DNA of 64,000 nt from Sulfurovum sp. (GTDB lineage: Bacteria; Campylobacterota; Campylobacteria; Campylobacterales; Sulfurovaceae), in NCBI RefSeq assembly GCF_015493435.1, contig NZ_WGDD01000001.1, forward strand, positions 1-64,000, in the 5' to 3' direction. The stretch's first letter is position 1. The number at the start of each line of letters is the position of its first letter. Below are positions 39,474 to 60,207 of the stretch, in pieces. The notes beneath the pieces were generated by a model, which saw nothing but the letters and a program-made list of their open reading frames with translations, was not told the DNA's origin and did not search any database. A program made the position numbers and the translations under genes.

Positions 39474-40772
39474 ATGCCGAAGAACCAAACCCAGTTAAAC
39501 ATTAAAACCAATCTCTCCCCTGAACTGCGTTTCCTCATCGCCTGCTGCCAGGCAGACCCGTCCAAAGATCTGGCACTAAATGCCGATACCCCCGTCGTTA
39601 AAACGAAAGAGGGGTGCAACGCTCTGATCGGCTTGGCCCATCAGCACGGCATACTGCCGCTGGTCTACAAAACCCTGAAACGACTTAGTGAAGAGGAAAA
39701 AATGGAAAACCCCGTAGGTTTGGCCGTGCCAAACGTTTATGGCAAGTCCGAATCTGCCACGAACGAAACAAACCCATTCACCCCTTTACTCTCCGACCTG
39801 AAGCATTTTTACATGTCCATAGTCCAAAAAAATATGTTAATGACAAGTGAATTACTGAGAATCATGAAACTTTTCGAAGAGAATGGCATTGAGGCATTAG
39901 CCTTCAAAGGCCCTGCTCTGGCACAGGTGGCGTATGGTGACATTACGCTGCGGCAGTATGGAGATCTCGATATTCTGATACACAGAAAAGATTTTAGAAA
40001 TATCGCATCCCTTATGCAGGAGAAAGGCTACACTCCCCATTACCCCATAGAGACGTTTAGCGGCGATAAAGTGATGTTTGAAATGAATAACGACTGTCCT
40101 TTTTATGACAGGAGCCGTGGGCTTGCGACAGAGATACACTGGGACTTTTTTCGAAAACTTGCATTGCCTACCAAAGGGTTTTCTCCCTGGGAGAATACGG
40201 AAACCGTAATAATAAACGGCAAGGCGGTGCAGACACTTTCACAGGAAGCCCATCTTCTCTACCATGCACTGCATGGAGCGAAACATGTATGGGAGCGGCT
40301 GGTGTGGATCGTGGATATAGACAGGTTTATACGTGCCGTACCGGATATTGATTGGGTTAAAACCATAAAAATGGCAAAAGGTATGGGTGCGGAAAAAATG
40401 TTTTTCTCGGGCATTGCACTTGCACAAAGGTATTTTCATACGCCTCTGCCTGACGATATCCGTCTTCGATGCCAGGCATTGGAACTTGAGCCTTTTATAA
40501 CCTATGTCGAATCGGAACTTGGCAGTGACAGCCCTGCTGCCGAAGACAGTTTGACAAAACTTTCCAAAGTCATTGGATTAAGGGACAATCCGTACTATAA
40601 AACCATGACGCTTTTGGCGTTTCTGTTCCGTCCTGGCATCAATGAACGGCGCATGGTCATCCTTCCGGACAGCCTTTTCTGGCTCTATTGGCTCCTTCGC
40701 CCTGCGGGAATGGTATACCGATTCATTTTTTGCCGTAGTATGAAACTTTGCAAAACAGATGCGGAAGCCTGA
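39474..40772 (+). CDS. Nucleotidyltransferase family protein (NTP_transf_5-like)
   Basis: 432 aa. The nucleotidyltransferase core is visible at FKGPALAQVAYGDITLRQYGDLDILI (about 140-165) with DLD metal ligands; later EIHWDFF and HALHGAKHVWERLVWIVDI match the family. Members occur in exopolysaccharide clusters; substrate unknown. The C-terminal coding end plus downstream 18 bp is duplicated at 41439-41486. Confidence 0.8.
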   Translation: MPKNQTQLNIKTNLSPELRFLIACCQADPSKDLALNADTPVVKTKEGCNALIGLAHQHGILPLVYKTLKRLSEEEKMENPVGLAVPNVYGKSESATNETNPFTPLLSDLKHFYMSIVQKNMLMTSELLRIMKLFEENGIEALAFKGPALAQVAYGDITLRQYGDLDILIHRKDFRNIASLMQEKGYTPHYPIETFSGDKVMFEMNNDCPFYDRSRGLATEIHWDFFRKLALPTKGFSPWENTETVIINGKAVQTLSQEAHLLYHALHGAKHVWERLVWIVDIDRFIRAVPDIDWVKTIKMAKGMGAEKMFFSGIALAQRYFHTPLPDDIRLRCQALELEPFITYVESELGSDSPAAEDSLTKLSKVIGLRDNPYYKTMTLLAFLFRPGINERRMVILPDSLFWLYWLLRPAGMVYRFIFCRSMKLCKTDAEA

Positions 40773-40790
40773 GTCAGACCTTCATATAAT
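40743..40790 (+). repeat. Direct repeat, left copy (flanks ParE/RelE module)
   Basis: 48 bp covering the last codons and stop of the nucleotidyltransferase gene plus CTTCATATAAT. Six mismatches to the copy at 41439-41486. Confidence 0.8.
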
Positions 40791-40833
40791 CACAGGAGCA
40801 CACAGGAGTGCTCCCCTGCAAGGGGTTTTAATA

Positions 40834-41118
40834 TCAATAATTTTTCTGTCTAAAAATTGTCAAAATATATACATGATCCTCAATAACTTTGTAGACGACC
40901 GTATACCCTTTATAGATCAAATCATAAGTATCTGCTTCATCCGTATAATAACTTTTCCGACATCTAAAAGGTAAGTTGTCCAATGTTCTTATTGTTGTTT
41001 TTAGTTCCTCTAAAAATGTTTCTGCTTTGACTGCAGTATCATTCTTCGCAATAAACCAGAAAATCGATTCCAGATCTTGCAGTGCTTCTGGTTCAACAAT
41101 AATAGTATACTGTTTCAA
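40834..41118 (-). CDS. ParE/RelE-superfamily toxin
   Basis: 94 aa. EPEALQDLESIFWFIAKND and IYKGYTVVYKVIEDHVYILTIFRQKNY follow the ParE/RelE plasmid-stabilisation fold. Overlaps the antitoxin gene by 4 bp (ATGA). Whether it cuts mRNA or poisons gyrase cannot be decided. Confidence 0.82.
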   Translation of the reverse strand: MKQYTIIVEPEALQDLESIFWFIAKNDTAVKAETFLEELKTTIRTLDNLPFRCRKSYYTDEADTYDLIYKGYTVVYKVIEDHVYILTIFRQKNY

Positions 41119-41339
41119 TATCCCAAAACTTTATTGAAAGCTTCATCCAGTGACACTCCTTCACCTTTAGCCATATGATCAATAGCATATTGCACTTTTC
41201 TTGCAGCCTCTTTTTTCGATATCGGGGGATAGTCATACCCGTTATCTTCTACCCTGATTTTATCTTGAGGAAGCAGCTCAAGCATGGTCATTACTTTATC
41301 AAAAATACTGTCATCAATTTTCAATTGAATGGTATGCAT
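41115..41339 (-). CDS. Antitoxin of ParE/RelE-type module
   Basis: 74 aa; N-terminal beta strand plus helix (HTIQLKIDDSIFDKVMTMLELLPQDKI) and a C-terminal EAARKVQYAIDHMAKGEGVSLDEAFNKVLGY typical of small antitoxins paired with RelE/ParE toxins. Precedes and overlaps the toxin gene. Confidence 0.75.
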   Translation of the reverse strand: MHTIQLKIDDSIFDKVMTMLELLPQDKIRVEDNGYDYPPISKKEAARKVQYAIDHMAKGEGVSLDEAFNKVLGY

Positions 41340-41438
41340 ATATTCTCCTCATTATTTCATTGGGTTTATTATAACATAATCAAAATTTCTATATTTTGAG
41401 GGGATCTATAATAATAGTTGAAAAATGAGATATGATAA

Positions 41439-41486
41439 AAACTTTGTCACACAGATGCGGAAGCCTGAGTTACATCTTCATATAAT
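41439..41486 (+). repeat. Direct repeat, right copy (flanks ParE/RelE module)
   Basis: Second copy of the 48-bp end of the nucleotidyltransferase gene (still reads K-L-C-H-T-D-A-E-A-stop), lying on the far side of the toxin-antitoxin pair. Confidence 0.8.
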
Positions 41487-41938
41487 ATTTCATTTTTAAA
41501 ACGGCACTGTCCTGCTTTACATCATAGCGCTTTTGCATATAGGGGCGGTTATGGGGTGTCTGGGCATGCAAAATCTTAAATTGTCCATTCATCACAGTGA
41601 CAAGTGTTCCCTTGGCACGTGTAAAGAAATCGGCATGATCGAGGCGTTTGATGCGCGCATCCCATCCCACCAGCTTCAGCCGTTCTGTACGGGCAATGTA
41701 AAAATTTGGAATCTTGTCATATACCGGCAGACCCGAGAGCAGTGTTCCCGGCGGGATAAGGGATGCTTTGTCGGTAGGATGCAGTATTGACCAGCGGCGT
41801 ATGTTTGAAAGGCAGTCTATCCCGCTCTTTTCTCTTTACCCATTTCAACTCCAGCGCGACCAAGCCTTCATACAAGGGTTTTCCAAGCCATTGAAGTTTG
41901 CCGTGCTTTAGGTGGCGGGAGAGAGTTTGTCCAAGCAT
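41470..41938 (-). pseudogene. Frameshifted gene of unknown function in the polysaccharide locus
   Basis: Starts MLGQTLSRHLKHGKLQWLGKP at 41938 and runs in one frame to about residue 35-40 (ALELKWVKRKE), then the sensible reading continues in another frame: EKSGIDCLSNIRRWSILHP, SLIPPGTLLSGLPVYDKIPNFYIARTERLKLVGWDARIK, ending MKYYMKM at 41470. One small indel near 41830 would restore a protein of about 155 aa. The ORF track shows only the two halves. Family not recognised. A 22-codon fragment of the same start sits right after wecB. Confidence 0.6.
41895..41938 (-). repeat. Direct repeat, downstream copy (flanks MazF-type module)
   Basis: 44 bp at the start of the frameshifted gene (SLSRxLKHGKL codons). 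Matches 42729-42772, especially the first 31 plus-strand bases. Confidence 0.8.
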
Positions 41939-42004
41939 TATGCAATAGCTTTCAAAGTTTTATTTTGTTTTTTCTTTATAGCATTGAATATCAACAATGC
42001 CTCC

Positions 42005-42325
42005 TCAACATTCAAGTTGCGCACACAGTGCTTCCCGGATGGCTGCAAACACACTACTCTTAAGCTTTGCAATACATCGAGTATGATTGATAAGTCCACT
42101 GTCTATAGCTGTTAGTTTTGGAATAATCAAAACCGATTTTTTCTTTAAACTCCCCTCTTTTATATCGCTACTGTCAATAACAATGCCTTTACCTGAAAGA
42201 TTTGTTGTCAGCGGCAAGACAAGAAGATCGTTTTTGTCAATTTTTTTAAACACCAAAACGGGACGTGCCTTAAACTGTCTGAAATGAGAGTAAGGCATAT
42301 CGATAACATAGATTCCCCCTACCAT
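42005..42325 (-). CDS. MazF/PemK-family endoribonuclease toxin
   Basis: 106 aa. GGIYVIDMPYSHFRQFKARPVLVFKK, LVLPLTTNLS and LIIPKLTAIDSGLI follow the PemK/MazF fold (conserved R in KARP, central T). Overlaps the antitoxin gene by 7 bp. Confidence 0.82.
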   Translation of the reverse strand: MVGGIYVIDMPYSHFRQFKARPVLVFKKIDKNDLLVLPLTTNLSGKGIVIDSSDIKEGSLKKKSVLIIPKLTAIDSGLINHTRCIAKLKSSVFAAIREALCAQLEC

Positions 42326-42630
42326 TTGCTGTAATCTTCCTCATCATAATCATGTTTGCTCAACCCTATGGCGATCTTGCCAAAGTTATCCAGTTCGACA
42401 TCTTTCCAGTAAGCCCAGGGGATATCGTTGTCTTTTTCCGTATTTGTTTCGTTTTGTTTCAAATGCGATGAGCGTGGCAGTTTGATCTCAAAAGGCATAC
42501 CACCTTCAAGACGGACTTTGTTTAAAAAAATATTGATCGCATCGGAAAGGGTTAGATCATACTCTTTAAATATCTCCTTTGCCTTCTCCCATGCTTCAGG
42601 GTCAACTTTTATGGAGGTTTGTTTTCTCAT
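42319..42630 (-). CDS. RelB/DinJ-type ribbon-helix-helix antitoxin
   Basis: 103 aa. MRKQTSIKVDPEAWEKAKEIFKEYDLTLSDAINIFLNKVRLEGGMPFEIKLP is the RelB/DinJ N-terminal RHH domain; the C-terminus is acidic (KHDYDEEDYSKW) and probably wraps the toxin. Pairs with a MazF-type rather than RelE-type toxin. Confidence 0.82.
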   Translation of the reverse strand: MRKQTSIKVDPEAWEKAKEIFKEYDLTLSDAINIFLNKVRLEGGMPFEIKLPRSSHLKQNETNTEKDNDIPWAYWKDVELDNFGKIAIGLSKHDYDEEDYSKW

Positions 42631-43938: not shown

Positions 43939-44340
43939 TTATTTGAAATATTTTTTCACAAATGTACTACTTGTCAATGTTTCTATGCCTTCCGCATAGA
44001 AGTTCTGATCATTGGTCACAATGACATCACACACCATTTTTTGAGCACTCACATACTGTAAACTGTCTTCTAAGTCATCATTTTTCAAAGATAATGCGTC
44101 ATGAAACATTTTGTTGTTCCCACCAACAACTTCAAACACACTGTTGACCAGTCTCAAAAAAGCTTTGACATCTTTTACCTGTTTATTTGCAACATAGTCA
44201 ATATTTAACAGTGTGATATCCAACACCACTCCAAAGTAGTATTTTTTCTCTATAGCATTAAATATCAACAATGCATTCTCAAAATTCTCTCTTTTTAAAA
44301 TGAGATCGAGAAAAATATTTGTATCGACAAAAACCTTCAT
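43939..44340 (-). CDS. PIN-domain ribonuclease toxin
   Basis: 133 aa. MKVFVDTNIFLDLIL supplies the first acidic residue, DLEDSLQY the middle acidic cluster, and DVIVTNDQNFY the last, as in VapC/PIN toxins. Overlaps the Phd-type antitoxin by 4 bp. Confidence 0.84.
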   Translation of the reverse strand: MKVFVDTNIFLDLILKRENFENALLIFNAIEKKYYFGVVLDITLLNIDYVANKQVKDVKAFLRLVNSVFEVVGGNNKMFHDALSLKNDDLEDSLQYVSAQKMVCDVIVTNDQNFYAEGIETLTSSTFVKKYFK

Positions 44341-44649: not shown

Positions 44650-45876
44650 TTAACTAATGTTAGAATATGAACAACTGTCAGCCAAGATACCCAACATCTT
44701 TTCAGCCAAGACTTTTCTGTCAAAATCCTGTACCAGTTTGTCACATCCTGATTGGCAGGTTTCATACAACGCTTTATCATTTTTAAGTCGTCCAAGTTTT
44801 TCAAGGAAATCTGTTTCATCTTCCGGTTTGAAGCAAAGTCCGGCACCATATTTTTCTATGATCTCCTGTGCCTGCCCTTCAACACCAAGCAGTGTGGGTT
44901 TTCGCATGGCGGAGGCTTCAAATATCTTGGAGGGGATGACGGTTTTGAAAGTGTCGGACTTTTTGAGCGGGGCGAGTGACACATCGATAATGGAGAGGTA
45001 GTCTGGCACCTGTTTTTTGGAAACGGGGTCAAGAAACGTTACATTTTTCAATGCCAGTTTCTCTGCCATCTCCACAATGGTTTGTTTCATCGCCCCACCG
45101 CCGACAAACAGGAAATGGATGTCAGGGTCATCCACTTTTTTCAAAGCGGTGACAATGAAGTCCAGACTGTGTGCCATGCCATGTGTTCCAATGTAGCCGA
45201 CAACAAACTTCCCTTCCAGTCCAAGTGATTTCAGGAGTGCCTTGTCTTTCTTTCTTGCAACATATAGCTCAAGATTTGCCCCATTGGTGACGACATCGAT
45301 CTTCTCTGCGTCGATGCCGCGGCCAATAAGGTTTTGTTTGAATGCTTCCGTCACGGCCACTACTCTGTCGGCATCCCTGTAGAGCCATAGCTCCACCTTT
45401 TCCAGCCAGTCAAGCACCCTGCTCTGCTTCATAGCCCCAACGGTACGAATGGACTCCGGCCAGAGGTCCCGCAACTCGAAGATCCACGGTTTCCTTCGGA
45501 TCTTCGAGATACCGACTGCTGCCCAGGTGGTAAAAAACTGCGGAGAAGTCGCCACGACGACATCAGCCTTTTGAAACAGCCCGACCCAAAATGCAGAAAA
45601 GGCAAAGCTCACATAGTCAAGTACCCGTTTTGCAAAGCCTTCGTTTGCAGTGATATAACTCCAGACCCGTATGACTTCAATGCCGTCAATATTTTCTTTC
45701 TGATACAGCCTGTTTTTATATCCCTCATAAACCTTTCCCTGCGGGAAATTGGGTGCACAAGTAATGATGGTTACTTCGGCTCCCTTTTTCACCCACTCTT
45801 TGCAGTGTTCATAGGTACGGGTTGCCGGAGCGTTGGTTTCGGGCGGGAAGTTGTCGGTGAGGAAGAGTATTTTCAT
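44650..45876 (-). CDS. Glycosyltransferase family 4 (WbuB-like), intact copy
   Basis: 408 aa, GT-B fold. N-terminal MKILFLTDNFPPETNAPATRTYEHC, catalytic C-domain VGYIGTHGMAHSLDF, and FEASAMRKPTLLGVEGQAQEIIEKYGAG with the EX7E-like motif. Adds a sugar to the surface glycan. Its 5' region (first ~49 codons) is found again, in pieces, at 47186-47344, 48150-48224 and 48805-48828. Confidence 0.88.
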   Translation of the reverse strand: MKILFLTDNFPPETNAPATRTYEHCKEWVKKGAEVTIITCAPNFPQGKVYEGYKNRLYQKENIDGIEVIRVWSYITANEGFAKRVLDYVSFAFSAFWVGLFQKADVVVATSPQFFTTWAAVGISKIRRKPWIFELRDLWPESIRTVGAMKQSRVLDWLEKVELWLYRDADRVVAVTEAFKQNLIGRGIDAEKIDVVTNGANLELYVARKKDKALLKSLGLEGKFVVGYIGTHGMAHSLDFIVTALKKVDDPDIHFLFVGGGAMKQTIVEMAEKLALKNVTFLDPVSKKQVPDYLSIIDVSLAPLKKSDTFKTVIPSKIFEASAMRKPTLLGVEGQAQEIIEKYGAGLCFKPEDETDFLEKLGRLKNDKALYETCQSGCDKLVQDFDRKVLAEKMLGILADSCSYSNIS

Positions 45877-45888
45877 TTTCCCTTTTCC

Positions 45889-47136
45889 TTATACACCAAA
45901 GTATTCCCAAAATGCAACAATCTTTACACTGTCAGAAGTATCTGACTGATTATAGGTAATAATATATTTACTATCTACTTCAAACGGCAGCTTGGCAAGT
46001 CCGCCTATTTCTCTTTTTCTATTTTGATCATGCAACTCATAACATACTTGAATGGCGATTATCTTACCATCTTGTATAGCTATAAAATCACATTCAAAAT
46101 TCTTATTGTAAAAATAGACTTCATATCCCGCTTTGATCAATTCTGTATAGACTAAATTTTCAAGCATCTTTCCACGATTCTCTGAAAAACTATAACTAAA
46201 AGATAAAAAACCATTATCATTGGCGTATATCTTTTTCTTGGAATGGTTCTGCTCTTTGAGAGAGTAAGAGTAGTGCTTGATCTCATCGATCAAATAACTG
46301 TTTTCCAGATATGACACGTACTCTTTGGCACTTTTATCATTTATATCAATTGCTTTTGCAAGTGAATTATAGGAATACAGAGATGTTACATTGGAGAGCA
46401 GATAATAACTTAACTCTTTAAAACTTTTGACATCTCTAATGGCATTATTGGTGACACAATCCTTAAGCAAAATAGTATCGTAGTAAGCGCTGAGTATCTC
46501 TCTCCTAAATTCTTCTTTGTTATCAACTATTTCTACAAAAGATCCATACTTGACCATATTGTCTACGATGTTTAAAACCTTCGGTGAGTGCTCTACAAGC
46601 TGCATATAGGTAGTGATGTCATTTATTTTCAATATCTCCTTTAATGAGAGTGGATACACTTTGGTAGATAAATATCGTCCTGTCAATAAAGTTGCCAGGT
46701 CACCATTCAGGAGTGAAGAGTTTGAACCCGTAATAAATATCTTTTTAAACGCTTCGTTATCGTAGACACTTTTCACATATCTTTCCCAGCCATTCATCGC
46801 CTGTACTTCATCTAAAAACAGATATGTTATATTCTTCTGTGTAAGTTTTTGTGCTGTCTGGATGACATCATGCAGTTTTGCAGCATCATCCGAATAGGGA
46901 ATAAAGAATGGATCATCCAGATTCACATACAGTATTTCCTGTGGGTCGATTTCCAGGGAAAGATGATTGATAAGAAGTTTGAACAGTGTGGATTTACCAC
47001 TTCTTCTTATGCCTTGAAGCACCTGTATATGTTTAACCTCCAGTTTTTTTACCAAACTGGGAAATATATCCCTCTCGTACAGTTCAGCATAAGGCTTGTT
47101 CCAATGTTTGTTTTGAGATAAAATTACCTTTTCCAT
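45889..47136 (-). CDS. AAA_14/DUF4143 ATPase
   Basis: 415 aa. Walker A GIRRSGKSTL (about 42-51), Walker B YLFLDEVQAMNGWE, sensor FITGSNSSLLNGDLATLLTGRY, then a DUF4143-type C-domain (NLVYTELIKAGYEVYFYNKNFECDFIA) that looks restriction-nuclease-like (ECDF...IQVCYEL). Function of such solitary ATPases is unknown; they spread as accessory genes. Sits between two copies of the glycosyltransferase 5' end. Confidence 0.85.
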   Translation of the reverse strand: MEKVILSQNKHWNKPYAELYERDIFPSLVKKLEVKHIQVLQGIRRSGKSTLFKLLINHLSLEIDPQEILYVNLDDPFFIPYSDDAAKLHDVIQTAQKLTQKNITYLFLDEVQAMNGWERYVKSVYDNEAFKKIFITGSNSSLLNGDLATLLTGRYLSTKVYPLSLKEILKINDITTYMQLVEHSPKVLNIVDNMVKYGSFVEIVDNKEEFRREILSAYYDTILLKDCVTNNAIRDVKSFKELSYYLLSNVTSLYSYNSLAKAIDINDKSAKEYVSYLENSYLIDEIKHYSYSLKEQNHSKKKIYANDNGFLSFSYSFSENRGKMLENLVYTELIKAGYEVYFYNKNFECDFIAIQDGKIIAIQVCYELHDQNRKREIGGLAKLPFEVDSKYIITYNQSDTSDSVKIVAFWEYFGV

Positions 47137-47185
47137 ACTATAGTAACCTACTTTAATCTATTTATTCGTATTATAGCACGAATAT

Positions 47186-47344
47186 TTATATTCTATTCAC
47201 TTTTCCTTGTGGAAAATTTGGCACACAGGTAATGATGGTGACTTCCGCCCCCTTTTTCACCCACTCTTTGCAGTGTTCATAGGTACGGGTTGCAGGAGCA
47301 TTGGTTTCGGGAGGGAAGTTGTCGGTGAGGAAGAGGATTTTCAT
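47186..47344 (-). pseudogene. Glycosyltransferase 5' fragment B (duplicate)
   Basis: 52 codons beginning MKILFLTDNFPPETNAPAT and continuing to FPQGKVNRI-stop. Almost identical over 146 bp (47199-47344) to the start of the intact gene at 45732-45876. Too short for the ORF track on this strand. Confidence 0.85.
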
Positions 47345-47410: not shown

Positions 47411-47776
47411 CTAAATCGATTCGTTTAGCTCTTGAATATACGCTTCTAATTCATCTATCTTTTCATCACAGATATCATAAATTATCTCAGCATCGATATC
47501 GATGTAGTGATGTGTCAAAATTTCTCTGGTTTTAATGATTTTGCTCCAATAGTTTTGAGAAGCGACGCGCAATAAAATCTCTCTATCTCTTTTATCGATA
47601 TTTTTCAATGCTTCACCAATAGACTGTAGCCGCATGGATATCGCATCCAACCTGTCGAGTCCTTCATCACTGTTTATAAAATCATCACTGCTGCAAACAG
47701 GCTCGAAACGGCGCTTGATAAGTGCAATACTCTCAAGTATAAACTTCAAAAGCTCTTTAGTCGCTGCTTTGTCCAT
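47411..47776 (-). CDS. HepT-like HEPN ribonuclease toxin (DUF86)
   Basis: 121 aa from ATG 47776 (GAGG upstream). The HEPN RNase motif RxxxxHxY is present as REILTHHY (about residue 85-92). In the HepT/MntA type VII system the toxin is silenced by adenylylation of the motif Tyr. Overlaps mntA by 20 bp. Confidence 0.86.
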   Translation of the reverse strand: MDKAATKELLKFILESIALIKRRFEPVCSSDDFINSDEGLDRLDAISMRLQSIGEALKNIDKRDREILLRVASQNYWSKIIKTREILTHHYIDIDAEIIYDICDEKIDELEAYIQELNESI

Positions 47777-48059
47777 AAACAACCTCTTTTTGAATGCTAT
47801 TTAAAATAACGCTGTTGCTGTTGCTGTGTTTGTGTAAAATGTCGACTTTTTTATGAAACAATGTCTCCAAATATACCCACAATCCTGCAAGATTGTCAAA
47901 TGTTTTTTTTCTAAATTCTACATAAAAATCAATATCGCTGGACTCTGTCTGCTTCCCTTTTGCATAAGAGCCAAAAAGACCTATTTTCTCTACACCAAAC
48001 TCTTTTTTCATAAAATTTTCCTGCTGCTGCAACGTCTGTAAAATATCCTTTTTTGTCAT
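47757..48059 (-). CDS. MntA-like minimal nucleotidyltransferase antitoxin
   Basis: 100 aa from ATG 48059 (GGGTGG three bases upstream). GLFGSYAKGKQTESSDIDFYVEF carries the GSx10DxD motif of AMP-transferring MNT antitoxins. Precedes and overlaps hepT. Confidence 0.86.
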   Translation of the reverse strand: MTKKDILQTLQQQENFMKKEFGVEKIGLFGSYAKGKQTESSDIDFYVEFRKKTFDNLAGLWVYLETLFHKKVDILHKHSNSNSVILNSIQKEVVYGQSSD

Positions 48060-48149
48060 ATTCCACCCTTTCAATTTTTCACATGCATATCTTTAAAGTC
48101 TATTACTATGCTATATTTAGCCTATTTGTTCATATTATAACACGAATAT

Positions 48150-48804: not shown

Positions 48805-48828
48805 TTTAGTGATGAAGAGGATTTTCAC
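48805..48828 (-). pseudogene. Glycosyltransferase fragment D (first codons)
   Basis: GTG-AAA-ATC-CTC-TTC-ATC-ACT, i.e. MKILFIT, the start of the intact glycosyltransferase; its GTG overlaps the CapK-like stop codon (GTGA). This marks the ancestral CapK-glycosyltransferase junction. Confidence 0.6.
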
Positions 48829-50117
48829 TTATTCTCCAATTCCGAATAAAAATGTTTGATTTTCCCTGAAGCCGGGCGCTCAATCCGGTCGACCTGATGC
48901 ACTACGATATTCAACCCTGGTTCAAGATATTCTTCAGCCGTTTTTTTCAACTCTTCTATATCTGTCTCCTCCAAAGCCTTATCGGAGACAACATCAAACT
49001 CAAACGTATCCAAAGCTGTTTGACGGATTATAAATTCTTTTAAAATACCGGAAGATTCAAGTAATGCACGTGAAACGTAATAAAAAGTAAACCCTGGTGA
49101 AAACTTTCCGCTTGGCAATTGGATAACATCATTTGTACGTCCCAACAATTTGTCAATCGATCGATAGGAAGATCCACACTTACATTTTTTTTCAGTTATA
49201 TCCGCAATATCACCTACCTTATATCTTACAAATGGGAAACTTTTATTAAAAAGATCTGTTACCAATAATTCTCCATTGGATGTTGACTCAATAAAAACAT
49301 TATCTTCAGGAATATGCATTGTACCTTCTTGACATTCATATCCAAGTAAACCGACCTCTGTCGTTCCATATTCCTGAACAACAGGAATTCCAAAAGCTTT
49401 TTCGATGAGTATTTTATCTTCTTTGGTACAGGTCTCAGATGTCACCATACATACCTTTAATGTAGGACAAATAGACTTAAGTAAAATATTGTTTGTATTA
49501 AGATATCGACAAAAAAGTACGATAGAACTGGTATAACCATAAATATATTCAAATTTATCGCTCTGAAATTTGCTTACCCATTTGGAAAATATTTTATCAG
49601 ACATTTCAAAAATGACAAATCTGTAACGATTCAAAACCATATCTTTTAGTCTTTGGACCCATGCAGATCTCCAACTTTTCGGTATACCATAAAATCGTGC
49701 CTCTCGACTGCCTATATCTATGCCATGCATTTGAAAAAAAAGTTTTTTTGCACTCCATACTCGGGCTTGCGTATAATAGTCTTTTGTAAATTTTAAAGGA
49801 TGCCCCGATGAACCAGAAGTATTGTTTGCATAGATTTCATTCTTATTTAAACTTCCACTTATAAGCTGATACTCATTACTTTGGAGATCTGACTTCAGGA
49901 CAAGAGGAAGTTCCTCCCACTTTTCAGGAAGCTGGTCACCTATATGTTCCCGATAAAATGCATTATTCTCATAAAGATACTGCACTATCTCCCATTTTTT
50001 CTGCTCCTGCCATGCTTCAAAGTCATCTTTGGGCAATGCCCTCAGTGTTTTCAGTTCATCAACGATGGGAGCAAGGTCATGGTGTCGCCATTTATAGATC
50101 AGTTCAAAGAGTGACAT
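48825..50117 (-). CDS. CapK/PaaK-like AMP-forming ligase family protein
   Basis: 430 aa. Adenylate-forming fold: NTSGSSGHPLKFTKDYY (nucleotide loop), QEYGTTEVGLLGYEC, and VRYKVGDIADITEKKCKCGSSYRSIDKLLGRTNDVIQLPSG. CapK-type relatives of phenylacetate-CoA ligase are common in capsule loci, possibly activating an acyl or amino-acyl substituent. The four-Cys-like CKCG motif is kept. Its 3' end once coupled to the glycosyltransferase. Confidence 0.83.
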   Translation of the reverse strand: MSLFELIYKWRHHDLAPIVDELKTLRALPKDDFEAWQEQKKWEIVQYLYENNAFYREHIGDQLPEKWEELPLVLKSDLQSNEYQLISGSLNKNEIYANNTSGSSGHPLKFTKDYYTQARVWSAKKLFFQMHGIDIGSREARFYGIPKSWRSAWVQRLKDMVLNRYRFVIFEMSDKIFSKWVSKFQSDKFEYIYGYTSSIVLFCRYLNTNNILLKSICPTLKVCMVTSETCTKEDKILIEKAFGIPVVQEYGTTEVGLLGYECQEGTMHIPEDNVFIESTSNGELLVTDLFNKSFPFVRYKVGDIADITEKKCKCGSSYRSIDKLLGRTNDVIQLPSGKFSPGFTFYYVSRALLESSGILKEFIIRQTALDTFEFDVVSDKALEETDIEELKKTAEEYLEPGLNIVVHQVDRIERPASGKIKHFYSELENK

Positions 50118-53591: not shown

Positions 53592-54780
53592 ATAGTAGCT
53601 TCCCAATCTCTTCTTCAAACTTTTCCAGCGTAAACTGCCGTGACCATGTCATAGCCTCTTCACTGCTTTGCCTGAATGCATCTGCATTTTCAAGATAATA
53701 TTTTACCTTGTTTACAATGTCATCCACATTGGGCATAACGATCTTCCCTCGAGATCCGTTGCCTATCATGTAATTGACACAGGAAACATCTGTCGTAATG
53801 GGCAGACACCCCCAAAACATCGCCTCTGCCACCACCTTCGGCCAGCCTTCAGACTTGGAGACAAAGATGAGAAAATGTGCATTTTGGTAGTAGCGTTTAA
53901 CAGTATCGGCATCTTGGTTGCCGTGAAGCACCACAAAATCTTCCAGCCCGTTCTCCTTGATGTACGACTCAAGCTTTGGACGTTCCACACCTTCACCAAA
54001 CAGATCTAAATGTACTTCATACCCTTCCTTGTGCAGACGTTCTGCAGTTTGAATGCTGAGCAATGGACGTTTCCCTGGGCTTAGGGCACCTACGTACAGT
54101 AAGTTGGAAGTTGGAAGTTGGAAGTTGGAAGTTGGAAGTTGGAGGTTGGAGGTTGGAGGTTGGAGGTTGGAAGTTTGAGGTTGGAAGTTGGAAGCTCTTT
54201 CTTGAAACTTGAAACTTGAAACTTCCTCCTCACTATACGTAGCTGTAAAAAACGGGACAATGTTACTACTCTGTTCCGGCCATTCACCATATACCAGTAC
54301 TTTCATATTACGGGTCAGAAACGTGTTGGAGAGTATCTTCTTTTGTAAACGGTAGCTCCATGGCTGTGGACTGTCAGGGTCCCAGTTGCCGGCATATTTG
54401 GCTGTTTTTGGTTTATGAGGGAAAAAGATCTGTGCCACACTGCCCAGTAAGCCCATATTGCCCGGACAGCGGAGGTGTATGTGGTCTGCCCAGACCATGC
54501 CACGTACGATCTGCACAAAAACGACAGGGAGTTTAAAAAGTGTTTTTACAGCCTCTTTTTTAGAAGTGAGGTGAAAAGCCGGAACTTCGGAAAATGTCAG
54601 TTTTTCATGTTTGTAAGGAAGGTCTATCAGATCGGCAGTGCCATTCTGTATGGGGGCGACCACTTTTACTTCATCGACATGTTTTAACCAAAGGTTCATC
54701 TCTTTAATATAGGGGCCATACCCATATATCTGATCACCTGTTTTTTTATGTTGGACGTGTGTGACTATGAGAAACTTCAT
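53581..54780 (-). CDS. Glycosyltransferase with in-frame heptanucleotide-repeat insert
   Basis: 399 aa GT-B enzyme. N-domain to about residue 185; then a repeat-encoded stretch (about 190-225: TSNLQPP-TSNLQLP-TSNFQLP-TSN) derived from 7-bp DNA repeats; then the C-domain beginning LLYVGALSPGKRPLLSI, with VSKSEGWPKVVAEAMFWGCLPI. The insert is at the linker before the catalytic C-domain, where it may be tolerated. A one-unit change in repeat number would shift the frame. Confidence 0.85.
   Translation of the reverse strand: MKFLIVTHVQHKKTGDQIYGYGPYIKEMNLWLKHVDEVKVVAPIQNGTADLIDLPYKHEKLTFSEVPAFHLTSKKEAVKTLFKLPVVFVQIVRGMVWADHIHLRCPGNMGLLGSVAQIFFPHKPKTAKYAGNWDPDSPQPWSYRLQKKILSNTFLTRNMKVLVYGEWPEQSSNIVPFFTATYSEEEVSSFKFQERASNFQPQTSNLQPPTSNLQLPTSNFQLPTSNLLYVGALSPGKRPLLSIQTAERLHKEGYEVHLDLFGEGVERPKLESYIKENGLEDFVVLHGNQDADTVKRYYQNAHFLIFVSKSEGWPKVVAEAMFWGCLPITTDVSCVNYMIGNGSRGKIVMPNVDDIVNKVKYYLENADAFRQSSEEAMTWSRQFTLEKFEEEIGKLLYGN
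54104..54222. repeat. Heptanucleotide array (17 units) inside a glycosyltransferase gene
   Basis: Thirteen TTGGAAG/TTGGAGG-type heptamers (54104-54194), one CTCTTTC, and three TTGAAAC. Same unit family as at 59736-59784 and 60159-60207, but here no four-helix-bundle gene is associated. Confidence 0.92.
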
Positions 54781-59023: not shown

Positions 59024-59794
59024 TTACGACTCTTCCTTTCCATTGAGGGATACATAAAAGGACTCTGCCTTTTCCCAATCCTCCATCGTATCGATATTGA
59101 TTAGCTCCGGACTCTCGATGGGGAAAGCCACAATATCGTCTCCAAGCAGTGAGCCTTTGTTGCGTATGGTCTCTACGGAAGTGATGTAGATGGCACCGTC
59201 ACGGTGGTAGGCAGGCGGAAGTTCCTGACGGCGGGGGATGATCTTTTTCTCTCCGGTACTGATTTTGAGACGGTTATTCTTTTCTATTTCAAAGGTCCAG
59301 TGAGGGTTAAACTCATCGGGCACCTTCCTCACCGATACCAGTGCATCGGGGCGTTCCTGAACAAACATGCGTATGGCATCGTCTATGACCCCTTGTGGAC
59401 GGTAAGGACTTGTCACCTGAAGCAGACAGACCGCATCGTACACTTCACCCTGTGATTCCATAAAATCCAAAGCATGCTGCACGACTTCAAGGCTTCCCGA
59501 ATGATCTTGCGCCAGTGCTTCCGGTCGCATGAAGGGTACTTCAAGTCCATAGTTGCGTGCCACTTCCGCTATCTTCTCATCATCGGTTGAGAGAATGGTT
59601 TTTTCAAGTAATAAAGCATCATTTGCCTGTTCAATGGTATAGGCGATCAGCGGCTTTCCTGCCAGTGGCTTGATGTTTTTGCCTGGCACACCTTTGGAAC
59701 CACCCCTTGCCGGAATTAATCCGAGGATTTTTAAGTTAGAAGTTGGAAGTTTCAAGTTGGAAGTTTCAAGTTTCAGGTTGGAAGTTTGTTTCAT
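59024..59794 (-). CDS. neuA: CMP-N-acetylneuraminate (or related nonulosonate) cytidylyltransferase with repeat-derived N-terminus
   Basis: 256 aa. The canonical protein begins at about residue 21: KILGLIPARGGSKGVPGKNIKPL; STDDEKIAEVA and LLQVTSPYRP are in place. The first 20 residues (KQTSNLKLE-TSNLKLP-TSNL) are encoded by 7-bp repeats, and the ATG overlaps the four-helix-bundle stop (ATGA). So initiation has been taken over by the inserted element. Makes CMP-sialic/legionaminic-type sugar for transfer. Confidence 0.88.
   Translation of the reverse strand: MKQTSNLKLETSNLKLPTSNLKILGLIPARGGSKGVPGKNIKPLAGKPLIAYTIEQANDALLLEKTILSTDDEKIAEVARNYGLEVPFMRPEALAQDHSGSLEVVQHALDFMESQGEVYDAVCLLQVTSPYRPQGVIDDAIRMFVQERPDALVSVRKVPDEFNPHWTFEIEKNNRLKISTGEKKIIPRRQELPPAYHRDGAIYITSVETIRNKGSLLGDDIVAFPIESPELINIDTMEDWEKAESFYVSLNGKEES
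59736..59784. repeat. Heptanucleotide array flanking four-helix-bundle gene (neuA side)
   Basis: Seven consecutive 7-mers: TTAGAAG, TTGGAAG, TTTCAAG, TTGGAAG, TTTCAAG, TTTCAGG, TTGGAAG. Lies wholly within the neuA N-terminal coding extension. Confidence 0.92.
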
Positions 59795-60147
59795 TGGATA
59801 CCTTTTTTTATGGAACTTATTAGAGCATTAAGCATTTTTTCAATTTCAAAAATTTTATCCAAGAGTATTTCATCATTGGCAATATAACCAATACGCTCCG
59901 AAATTTCCAATTGTGTTTGTAGTTCATAAAGAGAACCTAAGGCAATATGCAAAAACTGAACAAACTCTTTTTTAGAATTTCTTCCAGCCCCCTCAGCAAT
60001 ATTGGAAGGAATAGATACACCACATCTACGAATTTGATCCGACAAAGCATACATTTCATTTTTAGGAAAATCTTCCAGTTTTTTATAAACCAAAACAACA
60101 AGATCCATAGCTCTCTGCCAAACAATCAACTCTTTAAACTTCGCCAT
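59791..60147 (-). CDS. Four-helix-bundle protein (S23/23S rRNA-intervening-sequence family)
   Basis: 118 aa from ATG 60147 (GGAGG four bases upstream; the GTG at 60150 is too close). FKELIVWQRAMDLVVLVYKKLEDFPKNEMYALSDQIRRCGVSIPSNIAEGAGR is the hallmark of the four-helix-bundle family found in 23S rRNA intervening sequences and related to Avd of diversity-generating retroelements. No reverse transcriptase is present. Bracketed by heptanucleotide arrays; inserted between neuC and neuA. Confidence 0.9.
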   Translation of the reverse strand: MAKFKELIVWQRAMDLVVLVYKKLEDFPKNEMYALSDQIRRCGVSIPSNIAEGAGRNSKKEFVQFLHIALGSLYELQTQLEISERIGYIANDEILLDKIFEIEKMLNALISSIKKGIQ

Positions 60148-60158
60148 CACCCCTCCTC

Positions 60159-60207
60159 AACTTCAAACTTCAAACTTCAAACTTCAAACTTCCAACTTCC
60201 AACTTCC
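60159..60207. repeat. Heptanucleotide array flanking four-helix-bundle gene (neuC side)
   Basis: Seven units on the plus strand: four AACTTCA and three AACTTCC, i.e. TGAAGTT/GGAAGTT on the coding strand. Begins three bases after the neuC stop codon. Confidence 0.92.

What the first reader, a model, noticed from the sequence alone, without database searches (positions are those of the whole stretch)
40743..41486. ParE/RelE module flanked by 48-bp copies of the preceding gene's 3' end
The last codons, stop and 18 following bases of the nucleotidyltransferase gene recur beyond the toxin-antitoxin pair with six mismatches, still reading KLCHTDAEA-stop. The pair therefore looks inserted with target duplication at the gene's end, consistent with the other modules.
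Basis: seen in the sequence. Interest (0 to 1): 0.6.

Follow-up and report, generated by a model that had tools for sequence, protein, structure and literature searches.

The report
Toxin-antitoxin pair with duplicated target site
A small toxin-antitoxin gene pair has inserted where two neighbouring genes meet in a Sulfurovum-type bacterium, copying 48 bases of the target so that both genes keep their ends; relatives lack the insert, and similar insertions recur at other gene ends across the genus, as was known for restriction-modification genes in Helicobacter.

Summary
Window 40743-40790 recurs at 41439-41486 (42/48 identical) on either side of a ParE-type toxin (40834-41118, -) and a small presumed antitoxin (41115-41339, -). 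The genome holds these two copies only. The 48 bp is more than the nucleotidyltransferase (NTase) gene's end: it is the junction where that gene meets the overlapping 3' end of a convergent family-2 glycosyltransferase (GT2) gene. Five relatives (NTase 60-70% identical) have the two genes abutting, one copy, and no toxin-antitoxin (TA) genes. The window copies share ten bases absent from three of them, so the duplication arose in the window's lineage. In the same cluster, TA modules at two other tight gene junctions carry 45-148 bp duplications, one nested. Across the genus, 23 of 117 TA loci have flanking direct repeats (0 of 29 thioredoxin loci). At argH, an extra gene tail occurs only where a TA pair sits (3 of 4 genomes, against 0 of 26). 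Best reading: insertion with long target duplication, known for restriction-modification systems of Helicobacter, here for TA modules. The molecular step is unproven; homology-driven integration of module plus gene tail is the main rival.

The parts
39474..40772 (+). NTP_transf_5 nucleotidyltransferase gene, intact; its 3' end is half of the target
   Evidence: PF14907, 204.7 bits; 60-70% identical homologues in empty-site relatives
40743..40790 (+). left copy of the 48-bp target (NTase last codons and stop, plus 18 nt from the GT2 3' end)
40791..41438 (.). insert, 648 bp, absent from relatives; no transposase or recombinase gene and no inverted terminal repeats seen
40834..41118 (-). ParE/RelE-superfamily toxin, TTG start overlapping the antitoxin stop
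   Evidence: PF05016, 56.6 bits against a cut-off of 23
41115..41339 (-). presumed antitoxin, 74 aa, no Pfam or NCBIfam match; paired by position and overlap
41439..41486 (+). right copy of the target; carries the surviving 3' end and stop (41470-41472) of the convergent GT2 gene
41470..41939 (-). remnant of the GT2 gene: internal deletion (about codons 51-170 lost) and frameshift; relatives have an intact gene of about 290 aa
41895..41939 (.). GT2-side copy of the wecB/GT2 junction duplication (45 bp, 82%)
42005..42630 (-). MazF-like toxin (42005-42325) and RelB antitoxin (42319-42630) inserted at the wecB/GT2 ATGA overlap
   Evidence: PF02452 and PF04221; MazF DNA 96% identical at the same junction in L143
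42729..42773 (.). wecB-side copy of the wecB/GT2 junction duplication
45731..45878 (.). functional 5' end of the GT4 gene (copy A)
45889..47136 (-). AAA_14/DUF4143 ATPase module inserted at the GT4 5' end
   Evidence: PF13173, PF13635
47199..47346 (.). truncated GT4 5' end (copy B, codons 1-49), 148 bp, 90% identical to A
47411..48074 (-). HepT (47411-47782) / MntA (47757-48074) module
   Evidence: PF01934, PF18765
48116..48223 (.). third copy (C): repeats 47152-47259, i.e. 47 bp of the previous module's end plus part of copy B, 83%
48809..48833 (.). original GT4 start-codon region left at the end of the AMP-ligase-like gene (copy D), separated from C by a further small-gene stretch

Best explanation
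A bare type II TA operon (insert about 650 bp, no mobility gene) inserted at the overlapping convergent 3' ends of the NTase and GT2 genes and left a 48-bp duplication of the target, so that each neighbour kept a complete 3' end. This is one case of a recurrent process in the genus: TA operons enter tightly packed gene junctions with long duplications of variable length (about 30-180 bp), sometimes repeatedly at the same gene end. Shown: empty site, duplication, recurrence. Inferred: the insertion step is not transposase- or integrase-driven. The most likely form is joining or template switching of incoming DNA at a staggered or re-replicated break, as for the long target duplications known with restriction-modification genes. 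Selection then keeps the insertions that spare both neighbours.
For: Two copies and no others in the genome. Single-copy, TA-free junctions in L142, L144, L143, L145 and G024. The window copies match each other at 42/48 but relatives at only 32-33/48, with ten sites shared by both copies and absent from three relatives. Same anatomy at the wecB/GT2 and GT4 junctions. Genus: 23 of 117 TA loci with flanking direct repeats, 0 of 29 thioredoxin loci, 0 of 261 swapped flanks. At argH, extra tails only where HepT/MntA sits (3 of 4 against 0 of 26, p = 0.001).
Against: Of the 23 repeat-flanked TA loci, at least two are integron-type attC arrays, one is a tandem TA duplication and several are short repeats. 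Two of 22 NTase control loci also score. VapBC and HipBA in the same cluster show no duplication. No recent event with identical copies was seen, so the insertion step itself is not observed. No strain of the same species was available.
Confidence: 0.78

Rival explanations
1. Homology-driven integration: incoming DNA (for example a circle or fragment excised from another strain) carried the TA pair together with a gene-end copy, and a single crossover in that homology placed it here. The second copy is a donor allele, not a duplication of the local target.
For: The structure T-X-T is what a single crossover gives. The copies differ by 12.5%. Repeated accretion at the same gene end (GT4 here, argH in L230) is easy to explain. 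MazF DNA is 96% identical in L143 while the NTase DNA is 81%.
Against: Both window copies share ten bases absent from the three nearest relatives, so any donor must be closer than these. In the nested GT4 case the duplicated unit includes 47 bp of the previous module's own end at similar divergence (40/47 against 48/58). It does not explain how the first T-X unit arose.
Confidence: 0.3
2. Cassette insertion by a site-specific recombinase (integron attC sites or a tyrosine-recombinase att site in a gene end).
For: The genus does have attC-like TA cassette arrays (L044, L060), and phage att sites often lie in gene ends (general knowledge).
Against: The 48-bp copies are protein-coding gene ends without attC-like ends, differ in sequence from the other targets in the cluster, and duplication lengths vary from 26 to 178 bp. 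No recombinase is in the insert.
Confidence: 0.05
3. Dispersed repeat or REP/MITE activity: the repeats or the hairpin at the insert's left end are a small transposable sequence that carried the pair.
For: A REP-like hairpin (40795-40814) lies directly inside the left copy, and near-copies of it occur several times in G010 and G076.
Against: The 48 bp itself has no other copy in the genome. The hairpin occurs once in the window, so it is not at the other duplications.
Confidence: 0.03

Closest known systems
Insertion with long target duplication of restriction-modification systems (Nobusato et al. 2000, Gene 259:99; Furuta et al. 2010, NAR; as described in PMC3874152, PMC1643837, PMC3031569)
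   Same: Addiction-type module flanked by a long, variable duplication (order of 100 bp) of the target, seen by comparison of related genomes; first described in Helicobacter pylori, of the same order, Campylobacterales.
   Different: Here the units are type II TA operons (ParE, MazF, HepT/MntA) and a DUF4143 ATPase, not R-M genes. Empty sites come from other species rather than strains. Modules accrete in arrays at one gene end, and the targets seen in the window are overlapping or abutting gene junctions.
Integron gene cassettes with TA pairs
   Same: Small TA modules separated by repeats of about 60 bp; apparently present in the genus (L044, L060).
   Different: Cassette repeats are palindromic attC sites with conserved ends; here the repeats are coding ends of the host's own genes.
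Insertion sequences and transposons with target-site duplication
   Same: Direct repeat of target on both sides and an empty site in relatives.
   Different: No transposase, no terminal inverted repeats, and duplications far longer than the few bases typical of transposases and not of constant length.

Membership tests
Insertion with long target duplication (Nobusato/Furuta type) | long, variable direct duplication of target DNA flanking the inserted module | tested here: met
   48, 45 and 148 bp in the window; 26-178 bp at argH
Insertion with long target duplication (Nobusato/Furuta type) | related genome with a single, uninterrupted copy | tested here: met
   L142, L144, L143, L145, G024; 26 of 30 argH loci without module or extra tail
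Insertion with long target duplication (Nobusato/Furuta type) | inserted unit is a restriction-modification gene complex | tested here: not met
   insert holds a PF05016 toxin and a small partner only
Type II TA module, ParE/RelE toxin | toxin of the ParE/RelE superfamily | tested here: met
   PF05016, 56.6 bits, cut-off 23
Type II TA module, ParE/RelE toxin | recognised antitoxin family next to and overlapping the toxin gene | tested here: inconclusive
   overlapping small ORF present upstream, but no Pfam or NCBIfam match
Type II TA module, ParE/RelE toxin | toxicity and neutralisation | not testable with these tools
   needs expression in the laboratory
Integron cassette | attC palindrome at both ends | tested here: not met
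   the two 48-bp copies are a gene junction without attC-like ends; L044 and L060 show what attC-like repeats look like here
IS/transposon | transposase gene and terminal inverted repeats | tested here: not met
   no such ORF or repeat pair within 40791-41438

The most novel reading that the evidence does not exclude
In Sulfurovum, minimal TA operons are recurrent colonisers of gene ends: a common recombination route, shared with restriction-modification modules in Helicobacter, inserts them with long target duplications that spare both neighbours, and repeated rounds build arrays in which each round leaves a further copy of the gene end.
Probability: 0.35. Interest if true: 0.72.

Novelty: new variant of a known kind. 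Interest (0 to 1): 0.56.

Why it matters
How chromosomal TA modules without any mobility gene get into genomes is largely unexplained. This locus gives insertions with empty sites in several relatives, in a genus where the process recurs, so the route becomes testable. It also suggests how TA genes can come to sit between tightly packed genes: a long duplication lets an insert enter a gene junction without breaking either gene.

Tried and rejected
Dispersed-repeat reading: whole-genome search finds two copies only. Integron attC: the window repeats do not look like the attC-like repeats of L044/L060. A common end of the mobile unit at 40791-40820 turned out to be a REP-like hairpin dispersed in other genomes. 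Searching for the same TA pair elsewhere in the genus gave no close copy: DNA matches are partial and the antitoxin has only weak relatives, so insert ends could not be compared between sites. Ordering the GT4 insertions by shared changes was ambiguous (4, 4 and 3 sites). No solved structure is near enough in sequence to the toxin. Literature: long target duplication was found described for R-M systems only; no paper found described it for TA modules; Furuta 2010 is not held and Nobusato 2000 was not read, so their content is taken from later papers.

Full report
Observation. The 48-bp repeat is real: 40743-40790 and 41439-41486, 42 of 48 bases identical, no gaps, E = 7e-11 in a 12-kb self comparison. 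A whole-genome search with the surrounding 101 bp finds these two places and no other. Between them lie a ParE-superfamily toxin (PF05016, 56.6 bits, cut-off 23) and a 74-aa ORF overlapping it that matches no family but sits where an antitoxin should.

What the repeat is. Relatives show more. In G024 the NTase gene runs directly into the 3' end of a convergent family-2 glycosyltransferase (GT2) gene. The same GT2 gene is present in the window as a remnant at 41470-41939, with an internal deletion and a frameshift, and its last codons and stop lie in the right copy. So the 48 bp spans the overlapping 3' ends of two convergent genes. After the insertion the left copy completes the NTase and the right copy completes GT2.

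Empty sites. Genus-wide and named-genome searches with the NTase gave nearer relatives. Sulfurovum MAG contigs JALUXB010000027.1 (L142) and JALWHT010000044.1 (L144) have NTase, GT2, wecB, GT4 and a ligase-like gene in the same order with no sign of the window's TA modules. L143 and the 'Nitratifractor' contig L145 also have the NTase/GT2 junction empty. The alignment is unbroken across the junction once the window's insert and one copy are set aside. The window copies agree with each other at 42 sites but with L142, L143 and L144 at only 32-33; at ten sites both copies share a base absent from all three. The duplication therefore arose after the split from these lineages. The six differences are spread over both copies, so which copy decays cannot be said with confidence.

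Same anatomy next door. The MazF/RelB module sits at the ATGA overlap of wecB and GT2 with a 45-bp duplication (82%). At the GT4 start there are three copies of the gene's 5' end: A (functional), B (148 bp, 90%) beyond a DUF4143 ATPase, and C beyond HepT/MntA; C also includes 47 bp that belong to the end of the previous module. These 47 bp match at 40/47, the gene part at 48/58, which fits one duplication of the combined stretch by a second, nested insertion. A fragment of the start-codon region (D) remains at the upstream ligase-like gene. VapBC and HipBA have no detectable duplication.

Genus-wide test. Up to 30 best loci each were taken for the ParE, MazF and HepT families and PIN. Flanks on the two sides of the TA gene share a direct repeat (E < 1e-3) in 20 of 88 and 3 of 29 loci; 261 swapped-flank pairs gave none; 29 thioredoxin loci gave none; 22 NTase loci gave two, one of them a minisatellite. 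TA against thioredoxin: p = 0.008; against both controls pooled, 23/117 and 2/51: p = 0.008. The 23 are mixed: L044 and L060 look like integron attC arrays, L054 is a tandem TA duplication, several are short. The clear gene-end cases are argH 3' (L103, L105, and shorter L101, L116), a UDP-glucose dehydrogenase-like 3' end (L098, three copies), a DmsC-like 3' end (L096), a CobQ-like 5' end (L090) and a helicase-like 5' end (L170). These gene names, argH included, are from reading the translations, not from a family search.

argH as a second test. Among 30 argH loci, HepT/MntA follows the gene in four. Three of these have an extra argH tail (86, 75 and 178 bp, 91-93%); none of the 26 others has one (p = 0.001). 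The fourth keeps a 26-bp repeat (L116). In L230 the order is argH, a different small-gene module, a 178-bp argH tail, then MntA/HepT, an array like that at GT4.

Mechanism. Shown: an insertion at a formerly intact junction, a duplicated target in this lineage, recurrence at other gene ends. Inferred: no transposase or integrase, since the insert has none, lengths vary and targets share no evident sequence; selection for insertions that spare both neighbours. Whether the duplication was made by joining or template switching at the target, or by a single crossover with a donor piece carrying a gene end, is not settled; the shared bases and the nested GT4 case lean towards the first.

Known or new. 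Insertion with long target duplication is known for restriction-modification genes, first in H. pylori (PMC1643837, PMC3874152, PMC3031569). Sulfurovum is in the same order, Campylobacterales. No paper found in the held library describes it for TA modules. The window's case works like that process and fits its structural features; it differs in the kind of module. I rate it a new variant of a known kind.

Noticed in passing
window 40795-40814: REP-like hairpin GGAGCACACAGGAGTGCTCC just inside the left copy; near-copies are dispersed in G010 and G076, single in this window.
   Followed up: partly
window 41968-42013 and 44242-44287: 46-bp piece of a VapC gene (89%) lies between the MazF stop and the GT2 start; L143 has the same MazF without it. 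Origin unexplained.
   Followed up: partly
L031 18507-19303 (G024): A different TA pair (YafQ/RelE-like toxin and antitoxin) occupies the GT2 5' junction in G024, next to a wecB 5' fragment and a partial MazF at the contig end.
   Followed up: partly
L044, L060: TA genes separated by palindromic repeats of about 60 bp that look like integron attC sites, in Sulfurovum-group genomes.
   Followed up: no
window 54100-54224, 59718-59800, 60158-60207: Minisatellite-like AAGTTGGAAGTT repeats, partly inside coding sequence, in direct and inverted orientation.
   Followed up: no
window 45889-47136 and 47757-48074: The DUF4143 ATPase strongly matches PADLOC candidate defence family PDC-S01 (372 bits), and MntA matches PDC-S09.
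   Followed up: no
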